Assembly: GCA_019787685.1 (NCBI GenBank)
Contig: JAHNUO010000006.1
Span: 1,364,001 to 1,428,000, forward strand
Length of the DNA: 64,000 nucleotides
Source: Chiua virens
Taxonomy: Eukaryota > Basidiomycota > Agaricomycetes > Boletales > Boletaceae
Reading direction: 5' to 3'
This document shows positions 50,716 through 62,651 of the stretch, in pieces (within the stretch, counting starts at the first letter, position 1; each line of letters begins with the position of its first letter). A program made the translations under genes and the position numbers. The notes below the pieces were generated by a model that saw only the letters and a list, made by a program, of their open reading frames with translations, was not told where the DNA came from and did no database searches.

Positions 50716-53245
50716 ATGACTTCTTCCTCTTCCTCGTCCCCAGAAATACAGCCTGCCCCGACTGCAGATGCCCAGGAACGCTTCTCCTACAAACATGCCA
50801 CACACGACGAAGTCCTAGAGGATCTATCAAGGTCCCTTTTTTTGTATTTCCCAACGCCGTGTATCTTACTTTGGCGTAGCCGCTTTCTTCTGAATCTTCC
50901 CGACGAAGAGCTCTCATCGCTGGAACGGATATGCTTTCAGGTGGAGCAAGCGTAAGCCACTTGGCCGCTCTTTACCATTTCACAAGTTTATGCAAATCGG
51001 TAGCCATTGGTTCTATGAAGATTTTGTTCGAGAGCAAAACCCAAAGTTTCCATCTTTACCCCTCAAGAAGTTTTCCGAGATGTTGTTCCATGCCTGCCCT
51101 CTATTGCATCAATGGAGTCACGATCATGAACAAGCATTTAACACCTTCATGCAATATAAAACTAGAGTCCCTGTTTGTGGTGCGATAATGCTGAATGAGA
51201 CTTGGGAAAAGGTGCGGCGTATTCGTATTACATACCGCATAACTCAACCTCCCAACTCATTCCAGTGCATTCTTGTGAAAGGGTGGAAGTCTTCATCGGG
51301 GTGGGGCTTTCCCAAAGGCAAGATAAACGAGCATGAACCATCTCACGAATGCGCCGTTCGCGAGGTAAGCCCCTGTTCATTGCTGTAATAAATTGTTCTT
51401 TTTTATTTTGTTTATCAAAAGGTATTGGAAGAGACGGGTTACAACTTGGCGGGACAGATCAACCCAGCGGATGTAATAGAGATGTCCATAAAGGAGCAAC
51501 TTATTTCTCTATTCATTGTCCCTGGAATTCCGGAGGACTTTCCGTTCAAAACTCGCACTCGAAAAGAGATTAGTGTAAGCGCAAATTGTTTCATCTAAGT
51601 CTCATTATCTAAACGAATAACCAGCGGATTGAATGGTTCAAGCTGACGGATCTACCCACCTGGAAGCGTAATAGGGCTGCTCCTGGCAAGTTCTATCTGA
51701 TCTCGCCGTTCATTGCGTATGTCTAAAATGATTGATATCCGAGAAACACTTCTGATGACGTATAACAGACCCTTGAAGGCGTTTATCACAGCAAGGAAAC
51801 CGAGAGCGTTTGAATCGAGGAACCGCAAGTCCGTTCCGTACGTGTCGTCCAGTGACAGAGGCGCACAAGAATCGAGTTCATCTTCTGCTGACACTGGTGA
51901 ACCTCAAACACCCTCACCGCAATACAGTAAAGCCGTTTCGGTCACTAATGACCACATAATAACGCGACACGAGTCAGATGAAGAGAAGGGTGTCCTCGTA
52001 GAACCTTTGGATCCACATTTTGCACGCCTTCTAAACTCACTTTCCATTTCTGCTTCCAAGAATGTTGATACGAGGCCATCACTTGGTATCAACGGAGCTT
52101 CTCAATTACCAAAAGACTCTTCACCATCCAGTCGTCTCCAGACCCCAGACTGGTCCTCACGTATTCCCGCCTTCCACCAGACGCCGGTCGATTCTCCGAG
52201 CCTTCCTAGGCCTAAGCATATCTCAACACAGGATTCTCACTGCTCTCAAAAGCACTCGAATCTCATGTCTTCCCTTGACCCCGAGGTGGCATCCCGAGTT
52301 GAAAATGGTTCCGGTGATATATCGCCCGTCGTCGCGGTTGCAAACTCAAATTCTCCGACATCCTCTGGTACAACCGCACGGAAGCCATACATGTCTTCTC
52401 GTCGCAGCTCCAGCATTGCCGACATTTCCCCATACCTTTCTCGAGCATCCGAGGTACCCGCTTCAGGAAAAAGGCTAAAACAGTTGGCTCTCCTCGAGTC
52501 TGTGGCGGATGAATCTTCCAAGATGACACCGACTCTCATTAGCAGAGAGTTGCCACCCTTTCAAAGTCCGGGTTACCGACTTCCAGGCTATCCCGGGCCA
52601 TCTGCCTCCGTACCTCCACCAACATCTTACGGCTCTCAGGTCAACTTTCGAGGGTCATATGAATCAGGTGGATCCGTGCTTTCCATGCATCAGGCTCGGG
52701 GTGCGAATTTGGCATCGTTCCACCCTTTCCACGAATCACCCGTAATAGAGGATCCCTTCCAGGTTAGACCTCGCTCTAGCCAGTTCAATCACCCAACATC
52801 TACCTATCCAGGCGGCGTGTACACACGTGGCTCGAGGAATCAGAACCAATCTCCGTCTCTTTTAGGTGGACCAGTCCATGTTTCGCCCCCAGCGAACCTT
52901 CTGGGGAGATCTCTACAAACACCTTTGCCTCAGCCTTTTGCTCCAAGCCATTCGACTACACCCTTTCACCCAGCTCAACCGAACACTGCTCACCCTATTT
53001 ATTCCTATGCTAGCACATTGGACCATGCTGCAACCCGCACGTCACCCCACTCGTTCCATGCTCATCGCGATCCGTATGCAGTGCCTTTAACACATCCTGT
53101 GTTACCCCCACAATCTCGACCATCTCTCCCGTCGAGTAGCGTCCAGTTACTTTCCATACTCAACGGGGATCGTACGAGCGGGCCACATACCTCCATCTCG
53201 CATACAGGCCCGCCTTCCACCAGCATTTCAGTCCACACCCCCTAG
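50716..53245 (+). CDS. DCP2: mRNA-decapping enzyme Dcp2
   Basis: Seven exons: 50716-50831, 50880-50951, 51004-51211, 51266-51364, 51422-51574, 51625-51716, 51769-53245; 738 residues. Removes the m7G cap in P-bodies. The N-terminal regulatory domain ([36 protein letters not shown]) binds Dcp1; the Nudix box reads [24 protein letters not shown] with all catalytic Glu; box B with [17 protein letters not shown] closes the catalytic core at about residue 270. The remaining 470 residues are Ser/Pro-rich and disordered, with the short helical leucine motif VQLLSILNG at the C-terminus, the kind used to bind Edc3/Pdc1. Confidence 0.94.
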
Positions 53246-53772: not shown

Positions 53773-55050
53773 ATGCTGAATGGCAGCGGCGTCAAGATCT
53801 TTACCGGTACGTTAGCCATGTCCTGGATGTAGCAGTGGTAATATAGTATATGACGAGCAGGCACCAGCCATCCAGAGTTGGCGGAAATTATCGCTCGTCG
53901 GTATGGAGTTGGATACGGACGGTCTACATATACTGAATAAATTCTAGTCTCGGACTATCTCTTTCAAAAGCAGAAGTGACGAAAAGCGGAATTGGGGAGA
54001 CCAATGTTCGGATCGCTGAAAGCGTGCGGGAGAACGACGTATACATCATCAACACGGGGTGCGGATCGGTGAACACGGCGCTGATGGAGCTCTGCATCAT
54101 GATACATGCATGCAAGATAGCGAGCGCACGAAGAATTACGGCTGTGTTGCCGTTGTTTCCCTACGCCAGGCAGGACAAAAAAGACAAGAGCCGGGCCCCG
54201 ATTTCGGCGAAACTAGTGGCGAACATGATACAAAAGTCGGGTTGCGATCACGTTATTGTAAGCCTGATTTTTTGCGGATTTGTCGATGGAGATGATGACT
54301 GGGATGATGATAGACCATGGACTTGCACGCCTCGCAAATTCAAGGCTTCTTTGATGTGCCCGTGGATAAGTAAGTGAGATGATCATGGTGCATTATCGGA
54401 GGCTGATCGAGTGCACTCCAGCGTGAGTGTTGTGATCTGGAACGCGGTGTGTGGCTGGCTGATTCCTCGTGGGGTAGCTTTATGCGGAGCCATCGTCGAT
54501 TTTGTATATCCGGACGCATTTTGATCTGAGCGAAATTGTGATTGTGTCGCCGGATGCTGGAGGAGCGAAGAGGTGAGGAGCGGCGATGTCAAAGGGAGTG
54601 TGGACTGACGCGGGGCACGACAGGGCGACGTCTATCGCTGATCGGCTTGGGGTGGACTTTGCGCTGTTCCACAAGGAGCGGAAGAAGGCGAACTCGGTGT
54701 CGCGGATGGTGCTTGTGGGACACGTAAAGGACAAGGTTGCGATACTGGTTGACGACATGGCGGATACGTGTGGGACGTTGTGCTTAGCGGCCCGGCACCT
54801 GGCTGAAGGGGGTGCGTCCAAGGTGTACGCGATTGTGACGCACGGTATCCTAAGCGGGAACGCGCTGGAGAACGTGTCGTCGAGCGCGCTGGAGAAGCTG
54901 ATTGTGACGAACACGCTGCCACAGAGGGAGAACCAGGCGCGGTGTAGCAGGATCGAGGTGATCGACATTGGGCCGGTGCTCGGAGAGGTGATCAGACGGA
55001 GCCACTACGGGGAGAGCGTGTCTAAACTGTTCCACCAAGTGCCGTATTAG
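53773..55050 (+). CDS. PRS: Ribose-phosphate pyrophosphokinase (PRPP synthetase)
   Basis: Seven exons: 53773-53806, 53861-53900, 53948-54257, 54314-54369, 54422 (one nucleotide), 54478-54572, 54624-55050; exactly 963 nt, 320 residues, the usual length. Makes PRPP from ribose-5-phosphate and ATP for purine, pyrimidine, His and Trp synthesis. Motifs: [100 protein letters not shown], and the PRPP loop [15 protein letters not shown]. The join between VPVDN and LYAEP uses a one-base exon; splicing out the whole 108-nt interval would shift the frame and stop after about 17 residues. The C-terminal [11 protein letters not shown] is typical. Confidence 0.95.
54422..54422 (+). other. PRS: Single-nucleotide exon of the PRPP synthetase gene
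   Basis: The C at 54422 lies between intron 54370-54421 (52 nt, GTAAGT...CCAG, branch-like CTGAT) and intron 54423-54477 (55 nt, GTGAGT...GTAG, branch-like CTGAT). It supplies the third base of the Asn codon split as AA|C ahead of CTT (Leu), giving the conserved VPVDNLYAEP. No other AG/GT combination within 54370-54477 yields an exon of the required length class. Confidence 0.85.
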
Positions 55051-59532: not shown

Positions 59533-62500
59533 CTAATCCATCTCCTCGATTTCAATGTCGTCTTCCATGGCATCCAGATCCATCCCTTCAATTGAGACGC
59601 TCGAATCGTGGTTAGGAAGAATGATTAGCCTGTTCCGTGGACCGTCAAACCTAACCCTGGCAGTCTCGCCATCGCGAACGCGATCAGAGAGTAACATAAC
59701 GGACAACGGGTTCAGAACCTCGCTTTGTATCGTGCGGTTCAAAGGACGAGCACCGTAGGTAGGCGAATAGCCAACAGACACAAGGTAATGCTTCGACTCG
59801 GCATCAACGTCTAGGACAATATGACGGTCCGCAAGTCTCTCTTGAATTTCTTTCAGCCGGATATCCACTATATTGAGTATGTTGCTCCTCGACAACATAC
59901 GCTGTCAAAAAAGATTGATTGAACGGTCGTACATTGAGGCGATGGCGCGAAACTTACATATATGATGATATCGTCAATACGGTTGATGAATTCGGGGGGG
60001 AAATGTGCTTGGATAGCACCCATAACCAATTGCCTCGTGTGCTCGCTGATCGGACCTTCGCCCATATCGGAAAGGAAGGCAGCACCAAGGTTCGACGTCA
60101 TGATGATAACAGTGTTGCGGAAGTCGACAACGCGGCCTTGGCCGTCTGTGAGACGTCCATCGTCCAGAACTTGCAGAAAAAGGGTCACAAATTCGCGAGC
60201 TGCCTTTTCGATTTCGTCGATGAGGATAATGCAATAGGGCTTGCGCCGAACGTATTCGGTGAGTTGACCGCCAGATTCATGACCAACATAACCTGGAGGA
60301 GCGCCAATAAGACGCGCGATCGCATGTTTTTCTGAATACTCAGATCCGTCAATTCGAATCATGGCATCTGGAGAATCGAACAGGGTTGACGCAAGCTAAT
60401 CAAATTAGCCGTGGACACCAGTGAGCCATGTGGACGTGCTTACTGTTTTACTCAACTAATGTTTTGCCTGTTCCAGACGGACCGCTCATAAGAAAACTGG
60501 CAATAGGTCGTTGGGCATTCGTGAGCCCACTGCGAGATAGCCTGATTGCGTTTGCTACGGCTTTTACAGCCTCAGGCTGGCCCACCACCGATTCGGCAAG
60601 AATCTTTTCCATGTGGAGCAACTTCTCCTTCTCTGTTTCCATGAGTTTGGTAACCGGAATAGATGTCCATCGACCAACAATATCGGCTATATGCTCCGGG
60701 GTAACAGTATCAGTACCAGTGAACCCACTGGCTTCTTCCTCTCGTAATTTTTTGGCTTGAAGCTCCTCGAGTTTGGATTGCAATTCAGGAAGGGCATAGT
60801 AGCGAAGGTCTGAGGCGGTCTGAAGGTCATGTCTACGGGATGTGTCAGATACTACTGTCATCTGTAGATAAAATGCAAGAAACCGGCCTTCTTTCAGCAT
60901 CGTCAGCTTTCGCCTTCAGTTCATCAATCCTCTTGCGAGCACTGTTGATCTCGTCACCACGCTGTTTCTCAGCCTCATAGGCAGCATTGAGTGGTTGAAG
61001 TTCATCATCGATCTCTGCCATCGCCTTTCGGGCAGCAGCCAAACGATCCTTGCTGGCTTTGTCCTTCTCTCTCTCCAACGCATGAATTTCCACTTCGAGT
61101 TGCAACCTTCGATGCTGCAGCTTGTCGATCGCTTCTGGGGCTGTTTCACGAGCCACTCGCACGCTGGTAAGCAAGTATGAGCAGTCGTATCATAACATCT
61201 GACGAGCTTACCAAGCACAAGCTTCATCGACGAGATCTATCGCTGCGTCAGGTAACCGCCTTGACGTCAAGTAGCGATGAGCAAGGGTCGCCGCAGATAT
61301 CAAAGCACCATCGAGTATCCTGACACCATGATGTACTTCGTATTTCTCTCGTATCCCTCGTAGGATGCTGATTGTCTCTGGCACACTGGGTTCATTGATA
61401 AGCACTTGTGCAAACCTTCGTTCGAGCGCCGCGTCAGTTTCGATGTACTTTCTGTATTCTGCAAGTGTCGTAGCACCGATGCAGTGGAGTTTTCCTCGTG
61501 CAAGAGGAGGTTTGAAAAGGTTGGCGGCATCCATCCCACCTCCCTCCGCACCTCTCCCGGCCATGATGAGATGTAATTCGTCGATGAAAAGGATGATGGA
61601 GGTTCCGTCTTCGGACGCCTTTTCGACCTCGTTGAGAACATTCTTGATTCGTTCTTCATATTCTCCCTTATACTTGGCTCCGGCCATGAGAGCACCCATG
61701 TCCAGCGAGAAGAGTCGTCCAATCAGAGATGCAGGAACATCTCGATTGATGATGCGCTGGGCGAGACCTTCGGCAATGGAGGTCTTACCAACGCCAGGTT
61801 CTCCAATAAGAACGGGGTTGTTTTTGGTCCTAATAAGGATAATTAAACGGGTGTTGTTTATGACAACAAGACCATACCGTCTACACAAAATTCGAATGAC
61901 TCTCCTTATCTCATCATCTCTCCCAATGACAGGATCGACCTTCCCTTCTTGAGCCAGTGCAGTCAAGTCAACTGCGTACTTTTGGAGTGCATCAAAGCCT
62001 TCCTCGGCACTTTTGCTATCGATATGCCTATCACCTCGAATTTGCTGGATAGCAGTTCGGAGCACCGGCTCGGTAAGTCCAGCTTCCTTGATGACGGATG
62101 CAACAGAGGAGTCCTTTATGAGGGCAAGGAGAAGGTGATCCTGAGCGAGATATGCATCATGCATGTTCTTTTGTTGAGCCTGCGCCTCTTGCAAGACTTT
62201 GGCAGTAGCAGAACTGAGCGTGACATCATCGGGAGCTGGCGATTGAGAAGGTAGGCGGACAATGAGTTTCTGCAGTCCACGAGCGATGGGTGTCTATTGA
62301 AACAGTCGATTGATGCATAAGGAAAGGGGTGTTGATTATGTATCATGTCACTTACTGGGTCACCGCCCGCTTTCTGGATCACCGATGCAAAAAGGGGCCT
62401 AGGGGACGCCCTAGTTCCAGATAGGGACTGGGCTGATGCGGACGCTTGGTCATCGTTGAGGAGGACGGAGGCCAAGTGGGCAGGATGGACTGAAGAGAAC

Positions 62501-62628
62501 AGTTCAGCGTGAAAGACACGCGAGTCTAGTAAAGATGAGTTACCTTGCACGTTGGCGTAGTCTTTGGCGAGCTGGATAGCAGCAGCCAAGGACTGCCTCG
62601 TCTTGTCAGTGAGATTGTCGAAGTTCAT
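59533..62628 (-). CDS. HSP104: Hsp104/ClpB-type AAA+ disaggregase
   Basis: Exons from the start: 62628-62544, 62489-62356, 62293-61878, 61829-61212, 61163-60888, 60832-60444, 60395-59958, 59901-59533; 907 residues if one base near 60450 is ignored. N-domain [17 protein letters not shown]1 with Walker [10 protein letters not shown] and Walker [12 protein letters not shown]; the coiled-coil middle domain ([21 protein letters not shown]); AAA2 with Walker [39 protein letters not shown] and MTSNLGAAF; a C-terminus ending DDIEIEEMD like other cytosolic Hsp104 proteins. It extracts proteins from aggregates with Hsp70. The extra base before KTLASTLF could be avoided with a GTTGAG donor, but that loses five conserved residues. 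The intron 60833-60887 starts with GC. Confidence 0.93.
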
Positions 62629-62651
62629 AGTCAACCAGGATTATTCAACAA

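What the first reader, a model, noticed from the sequence alone, without database searches (positions are those of the whole stretch)
54370..54477. A one-nucleotide exon in PRPP synthetase
The 108-bp interval between two conserved coding blocks is twice the local intron size and divides perfectly into a 52-nt and a 55-nt intron, each with consensus donor (GTAAGT, GTGAGT), a CTGAT branch-like site and a good acceptor, leaving only the C at 54422. Including that single base restores the invariant VPVDN-LYAEP sequence and gives exactly 320 codons; skipping it shifts the frame and truncates the enzyme. One-base exons are almost unknown (a case in Arabidopsis APC11 has been reported) and are normally invisible to gene predictors and aligners. 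Intron definition, usual in fungi with short introns, would explain how it can be spliced. Seen directly: splice sites, sizes, frame. Inference: that both introns are removed.
Basis: partly seen in the sequence, partly recalled or inferred. Interest (0 to 1): 0.92.

Follow-up and report, generated by a model that had tools for sequence, protein, structure and literature searches.

The report
One-base exon in mushroom PRPP synthetase
A gene for an essential nucleotide-making enzyme in a mushroom-type fungus appears to contain an exon of a single DNA letter, and related mushrooms seem to share it, since most of their public gene annotations that were looked at are wrong at exactly this spot.

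Summary
The PRPP synthetase gene (53773-55050, +) has exons of 34, 40, 310, 56, 1, 95 and 427 nt; the one-base exon is the C at 54422, between introns of 52 and 55 nt (other introns of the gene: 47-56 nt). With the C the protein is 320 aa and reads VPVDN-LYAEP. Joining the outer sites directly, or retaining either or both introns, truncates it at 147-180 aa.

No transcript of this organism was available. Support comes from relatives: of the genome-annotated agaricomycete orthologues listed, 57 of 62 are wrong at exactly this codon (K, loss of VDN, short inserts), whereas 62 of 62 agaricomycete records on short intron-free contigs (taken as transcripts) have normal length there (61 Asn, 1 Ser), as do 170 of 170 other records. 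Three Pleurotus annotations fail in three different ways, each 100% identical outside the site to one transcript-like record with VPVDN. Three of the error types, 38 of the 57 cases, can be reproduced on the window locus. This argues against an assembly error and for an old one-base exon in Agaricomycetes.

One-base nuclear exons are already published (plant APC11 and VPS55, Fusarium CYP621A): this is a new member of a known kind. My searches of the held papers found none in a basidiomycete or in PRPP synthetase.

The parts
53773..53806 (+). PRPP synthetase exon 1 (34 nt, start codon)
53861..53900 (+). PRPP synthetase exon 2 (40 nt)
53948..54257 (+). PRPP synthetase exon 3 (310 nt)
54314..54369 (+). 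PRPP synthetase exon 4 (56 nt), ends GAT-AA, the first two bases of the Asn147 codon
54370..54421 (+). intron A, phase 2, 52 nt, GTAAGT...CTGAT...CTCCAG
54422..54422 (+). one-base exon C, third base of the Asn147 codon (AAC)
   Evidence: relatives
54423..54477 (+). intron B, phase 0, 55 nt, GTGAGT...CTGAT...GGGTAG
54478..54572 (+). PRPP synthetase exon 6 (95 nt), starts CTT-TAT-GCG-GAG-CCA (LYAEP)
54624..55050 (+). PRPP synthetase exon 7 (427 nt, stop codon)

Best explanation
The C at 54422 is a real, normally included single-nucleotide exon of the fungus's PRPP synthetase gene. It supplies the third base of the Asn147 codon and is flanked by two ordinary short spliceosomal introns of phases 2 and 0. 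Each intron is probably recognised on its own by intron definition; because the AG of intron A and the GT of intron B are one base apart, the two are probably removed one after the other, in either order (inference). Whichever goes first leaves an ordinary single intron: removal of B leaves AA|GTAAGT...CAG|CCTT, removal of A leaves AAC|GTGAGT...TAG|CTT. Skipping the C joins the outer sites, shifts the frame and ends the protein after 163 aa. The same arrangement is inherited in many Agaricomycetes (inferred from the pattern of annotation errors; their DNA was not seen).
For: Shown in the window: splice sites, sizes, frame, restored motif; 8 of 100,000 shuffles give the same arrangement. The motif is the same in human PRPS1 and is uninterrupted in the second PRPS copy of the same genome (L003). 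Relatives: of the 120 best homologues, 61 lie on jgi/lgn contigs of 984-2976 nt that hold the whole ORF; at the site 60 read DN and 1 reads DS, none with an indel; 54 of the 59 ncbi genome annotations deviate there, while no indel was counted elsewhere in either group between residues 6 and 317. One search adds 1 agaricomycete-like jgi record (DN) and 3 annotations that lose VDN. Outside the site, Pleurotus P0119 (insert KLTIGYLVS), P0117 (VDN lost) and P0052 (K) are each 100% identical to P0036 (lgn, DN); Leucocoprinus P0049 is 100% identical to P0011, Suillus P0018 100% to P0004, Fomes P0112 99.7% to P0083, Macrolepiota P0037 99.7% to P0023. On the window locus the K, lost-VDN and NVS forms (22, 15 and 1 of the 57 errors) can be reproduced; K follows whichever neighbouring exon a mapper stretches by one base, since both bordering intron bases are G. 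NVS matches AA-C-GTRAGT read through donor B. Controls: 170 of 170 records outside Agaricomycetes are intact at the site. Fisher test for 57/62 against 0/61: p 1.3e-29, rows not independent.
Against: No RNA from this organism and no DNA from any relative was seen. Five of 62 annotations are correct at the site (Laccaria, Moniliophthora, Marasmius oreades, two Taiwanofungus), and whether they annotate the one-base exon or have lost an intron is unknown. Another one-base exon (T at 54428, acceptor CGTGAG, donor GTTGTG) gives the same protein. The KW, KC and KY errors (11 of 57) cannot be reproduced here, because the window's donor GTAAGT would give an in-frame stop; they need another donor in those species, which I could not check. 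Introns A and B have no clear common origin (469 of 5000 shuffled pairs score as high).
Confidence: 0.93

Rival explanations
1. One 108-nt intron, and the assembly lacks a base next to the acceptor (CC read as C at 54478).
For: A CC collapse would also restore AAC-CTT; 108 nt is a possible intron size. The base calls themselves were not checked against reads.
Against: Would not explain why 57 of 62 independently sequenced and annotated agaricomycetes fail at the same codon. Would leave the internal AG-C-GTGAGT with two branch-like sites as an accident (8 of 100,000 shuffles). The rest of the CDS has no frameshift.
Confidence: 0.02
2. One canonical 116-nt intron, 54362-54477, with donor GTGGAT: a 317-aa enzyme without VDN, as 15 of 62 public agaricomycete annotations have it.
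For: In frame with GT-AG ends; 12 of 59 annotations and 3 more show this form.
Against: 0 of 62 transcript-like agaricomycete records and 0 of 170 other records lack VDN. Annotations with VDN lost from Suillus and Pleurotus are 100% identical outside the site to transcript-like records with VDN. It ignores two strong donors (GTAAGT, GTGAGT).
Confidence: 0.015
3. Another small exon: 4, 7 or 10 nt (VPVDN-V, -VS, -VSV) or the T at 54428 as the one-base exon.
For: All are in frame; Rhizopogon is annotated as NVS (P0008), Tricholomella and Lyophyllum as NVSD (P0035, P0058).
Against: No record on a transcript-like contig carries these inserts. They need weak donors (GTTGTG, GTGATC) and in two cases the acceptor CGTGAG. 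The T-54428 form would still be a one-base exon with the same protein.
Confidence: 0.025
4. One intron with non-canonical ends (TA-AG or GT-TA) and a genuine Lys in place of Asn.
For: The commonest annotation form (K, 22 of 59); in frame at 320 aa.
Against: No transcript-like record has K; Pleurotus ostreatus PC15 is annotated K while P0036, 100% identical outside the site, has N. Asn is found in 170 of 170 records outside Agaricomycetes.
Confidence: 0.01

Closest known systems
One-base exons of APC11 and VPS55 in land plants (Guo and Liu 2015, PMC4674806, parts 1 and 2 of 3 read; Yu-type plant survey PMC8831610, passages read)
   Same: A single nuclear nucleotide between two spliceosomal introns, needed for the frame, missed by annotation, conserved over a large clade; VPS55 has GTRAGT donors at the one-base exon, as here.
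   Different: Plants, longer introns (the APC11 base lies 333 nt into a 422-nt stretch), other genes; confirmed there by RT-PCR or RNA-seq and by constructs.
One-base exon of cytochrome P450 CYP621A in Fusarium (Nelson and Syed 2026, PMC12940212, parts 1 and 2 of 3 read)
   Same: Fungal nuclear gene with short introns; [quoted passage not shown] public models wrong there.
   Different: Ascomycete, one genus, secondary-type enzyme, exon G (AGGGT) giving the middle base of a Gly codon; supported by 18 SRA reads. Here: basidiomycete, essential enzyme, exon C, signs of sharing across several orders, no reads.
Mitochondrial one-base exons: placozoan cox1 (PMC5436844, passages) and fungal rnl (PMC12308204, passages)
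   Same: One base isolated between two introns.
   Different: Group I or group II introns in organelles, not the spliceosome.

Membership tests
Nuclear spliceosomal single-nucleotide exon | One genomic base flanked by a 3' AG and a 5' GT | tested here: met
   CTCCAG-C-GTGAGT at 54416-54428
Nuclear spliceosomal single-nucleotide exon | Base needed for frame and for a conserved motif | tested here: met
   320 aa with it, 147-180 aa in the four simplest models without it; VPVDN intact in 170 of 170 outside records. In-frame alternatives with an altered motif exist
Nuclear spliceosomal single-nucleotide exon | Both flanks look like functional introns | tested here: met
   52 and 55 nt, GTAAGT/CAG and GTGAGT/TAG, CTGAT 15 nt from the end in both; other introns of the gene 47-56 nt, five placed introns of the paralogue 56-76 nt
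Nuclear spliceosomal single-nucleotide exon | Transcript shows the base included between both neighbours | tested here: inconclusive
   No RNA of this organism; 62 of 62 transcript-like agaricomycete records have normal length at the site (61 Asn, 1 Ser), but their nucleotides were not seen
Nuclear spliceosomal single-nucleotide exon | Conserved AG-N-GT in orthologous DNA | not testable with these tools
   Agaricomycete genomes are not held; a pattern scan of genome contigs gave one bacterial chance hit (L009) and of viral contigs none. Only indirect traces in annotated proteins
Class I PRPP synthetase | Full-length PRPS fold by sequence | tested here: met
   Human PRPS1 (4lzn_B and others), residues 6-319, E about 1e-131

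The most novel reading that the evidence does not exclude
The one-base exon arose once before Agaricales, Boletales, Polyporales, Russulales, Jaapiales and Amylocorticiales separated and is kept because its inclusion is a control point: incomplete inclusion yields a frameshifted, prematurely ended PRPS message, so the efficiency of two overlapping splicing events sets the supply of PRPP.
Probability: 0.08. Interest if true: 0.88.

Novelty: new member of a known kind. Interest (0 to 1): 0.72.

Why it matters
It extends one-base nuclear exons to a basidiomycete and to an essential enzyme of primary metabolism, and suggests that such an exon can persist across several fungal orders. It shows that most of the public agaricomycete PRPS protein entries examined are wrong at a conserved residue (Asn147, human PRPS1 Asn144), and gives a cheap way to find more such exons: look for conserved codons where annotations of close relatives disagree while transcript-derived proteins agree. 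It also offers a naturally conserved substrate for the open question of how the spliceosome handles a 3' and a 5' splice site one base apart.

Tried and rejected
Single-intron and other two-intron models were enumerated and weighed against relatives. Duplication of one intron into the other was tested and is not supported (A-B score 5.5, reached by 469 of 5000 shuffled pairs; the pair ranks 9th of 55 intron pairs). A DNA pattern for this donor junction was scanned for in genome contigs and viral contigs to find stray fungal contigs: one bacterial chance match (L009, no PRPS reading frame) and none. Searches for more distant basidiomycetes with two constructed queries returned animals, early-diverging fungi and again Agaricomycetes: they served as controls, but the age of the exon below the listed orders stays open. 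A search for PRPS1 with Asn144 found no paper; with N144 one. Metagenome contigs was not used because its cap is 0.

Full report
Observation. The window holds a PRPP synthetase gene on the + strand, 53773-55050, with exons of 34, 40, 310, 56, 1, 95 and 427 nt and introns of 54, 47, 56, 52, 55 and 51 nt. The CDS is 963 nt, 320 codons and a stop. The protein matches human PRPS1 over residues 6-319 with E about 1e-131. Exon 4 ends GAT-AA; the C at 54422 completes AAC (Asn147, human Asn144 by the alignment); the next exon starts CTT-TAT-GCG-GAG-CCA. Joining the outer sites directly ends the protein at 163 aa; removing only one intron gives 180 or 147 aa, removing neither 147 aa. The interval is present once in the genome by DNA search.

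Chance. With the first six and last three bases fixed, 8 of 100,000 dinucleotide-preserving shuffles had AG-N-GTRAGT with both parts 40-70 nt and a branch-like motif in each part (55 with GTRNGT, 621 with GTR). YAG-N-GTRAGT occurs once in the window on both strands together. Both introns have CTGAT with the A 15 nt from the end; two of the other four introns of the gene have no match to the motif used.

Alternatives in the window. Seven single-intron models with GT or GC donors stay in frame; all of them lose residues of the conserved block or of its neighbours, the mildest being donor GTGGAT (317 aa, VDN lost). With the outer sites fixed there are five two-intron solutions: exons of 1, 7 and 10 nt from 54422 and of 1 and 4 nt from 54428. 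The two one-base solutions give the same protein; the one at 54428 (T) needs acceptor CGTGAG and donor GTTGTG.

Relatives. The 120 best homologues were aligned and split by source. 61 have only jgi or lgn sources and lie on contigs of 984-2976 nt that hold the complete ORF; since the window gene has six introns I take them to be transcripts (inference; that lgn stands for the Logan assemblies is recalled). At the site 60 of 61 read DN (one of these DIPVDN) and one DS, none with an indel. The other 59 are ncbi genome annotations: 5 read DN; 22 read DK; 12 lose VDN; 8 read KW, 2 KC, 1 KY; 1 NVS, 2 NVSD; and 6 have other inserts. No indel was counted in either group elsewhere between residues 6 and 317; the list is the best 120 by score, so badly broken models are under-represented. 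One search adds one agaricomycete-like jgi record (DN) and three annotations with VDN lost: in total 57 of 62 annotations deviate, 62 of 62 transcript-like records do not change length. Rows are not independent; the Fisher p of 1.3e-29, computed with 57/62 against 0/61, is only descriptive.

Same protein, different errors. Outside the site Pleurotus P0119 (insert KLTIGYLVS), P0117 (VDN lost) and P0052 (K) are each 100% identical to P0036, an lgn record of 1461 nt with DN. Leucocoprinus P0049 is 100% identical to P0011, Suillus P0018 100% to P0004, Fomes P0112 99.7% to P0083, Macrolepiota P0037 99.7% to P0023, Stereum P0104 98.7% to P0071, all of the latter with DN. So the annotators, not the proteins, differ.

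The errors trace the structure. On the window locus, stretching either neighbouring exon by one base gives DK at 320 aa, donor GTGGAT gives the 317-aa form, and reading the C plus GTGAGT as a 7-nt exon gives NVS. These forms make up 22, 15 and 1 of the 57 errors. KW, KC and KY (11) would follow from a donor 4 nt downstream in species with GTGGGT, GTGCGT or GTATGT; the window's GTAAGT gives a stop there, so this is unverified. Inserts ending in S before LYAEP (P0037, P0044, P0049, P0119) fit the AG end of intron A plus the exon base read as a Ser codon, and inserts ending in Q (P0045, P0061) fit the CAG end of intron B (inference from the protein letters).

Controls. 170 of 170 records outside Agaricomycetes (120, 50; at most 69.8% identical to the agaricomycete consensus; some unnamed) keep VDN-[LIM][YF]xEP. 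The second PRPS copy of the same genome (C1, locus L003) reads GAC-AAC-CTC without an intron; its five placed introns are 56-76 nt.

Breadth. Aberrant annotations include Jaapia (Jaapiales), Heterobasidion (Russulales) and Plicaturopsis (Amylocorticiales), and genera that I place from memory in Agaricales, Boletales and Polyporales. If the errors reflect one inherited structure, it predates these orders.

Mechanism. Two short introns, each with its own donor, branch-like site and acceptor, fit intron definition; the Arabidopsis paper discusses intron definition combined with stepwise removal for APC11. The sites are one base apart, so sequential removal is the likely course (inference). No evidence here bears on the order or on regulation.

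Literature. One-base nuclear exons: APC11 in Arabidopsis (PMC4674806, parts 1 and 2 of 3 read), APC11 and VPS55 over land plants (PMC8831610, passages), CYP621A in Fusarium (PMC12940212, parts 1 and 2 of 3, passages), which calls itself the first fungal case. Mitochondrial cases: PMC5436844 and PMC12308204 (passages). PRPS1 N144S is in a table of relapse-specific ALL mutations (PMC7403961, one passage). Searches in the held library for single-nucleotide exon, one-nucleotide exon, 1-nt and similar wordings, micro-exon with basidiomycete, microexon terms with agaricomycete names, and PRPS names with microexon terms (listings capped) showed no basidiomycete or PRPS case. Subscription papers and preprints are not covered.

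Verdict. The finding stands as a very probable one-base exon and gains a strong, previously unmentioned line of support from relatives. The kind is known; the gene, the phylum and the probable breadth are new as far as searched.

Noticed in passing
L003:2156-2231 (paralogue, G000 C1): The second PRPS copy of this genome has a GC-AG intron (GCACGT...CAG, 76 nt); its intron in GGAKR is at the same place as the window gene's last intron.
   Followed up: partly
Public proteins P0003-P0120, P0268, P0269, P0274: 57 of the 62 genome-annotated agaricomycete PRPS proteins listed are wrong at or next to Asn147; these database entries could be corrected.
   Followed up: yes
window 50894-51388 (+): ORF just upstream that looks like an mRNA-decapping Dcp2 Nudix protein by recalled motifs; not tested.
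   Followed up: no
window 59868-62640 (-): ORF pieces that look like a ClpB/Hsp104-type chaperone by recalled motifs, interrupted by introns; not tested.
   Followed up: no
P0022: One transcript-like agaricomycete record has Ser instead of Asn at the codon completed by the one-base exon.
   Followed up: no
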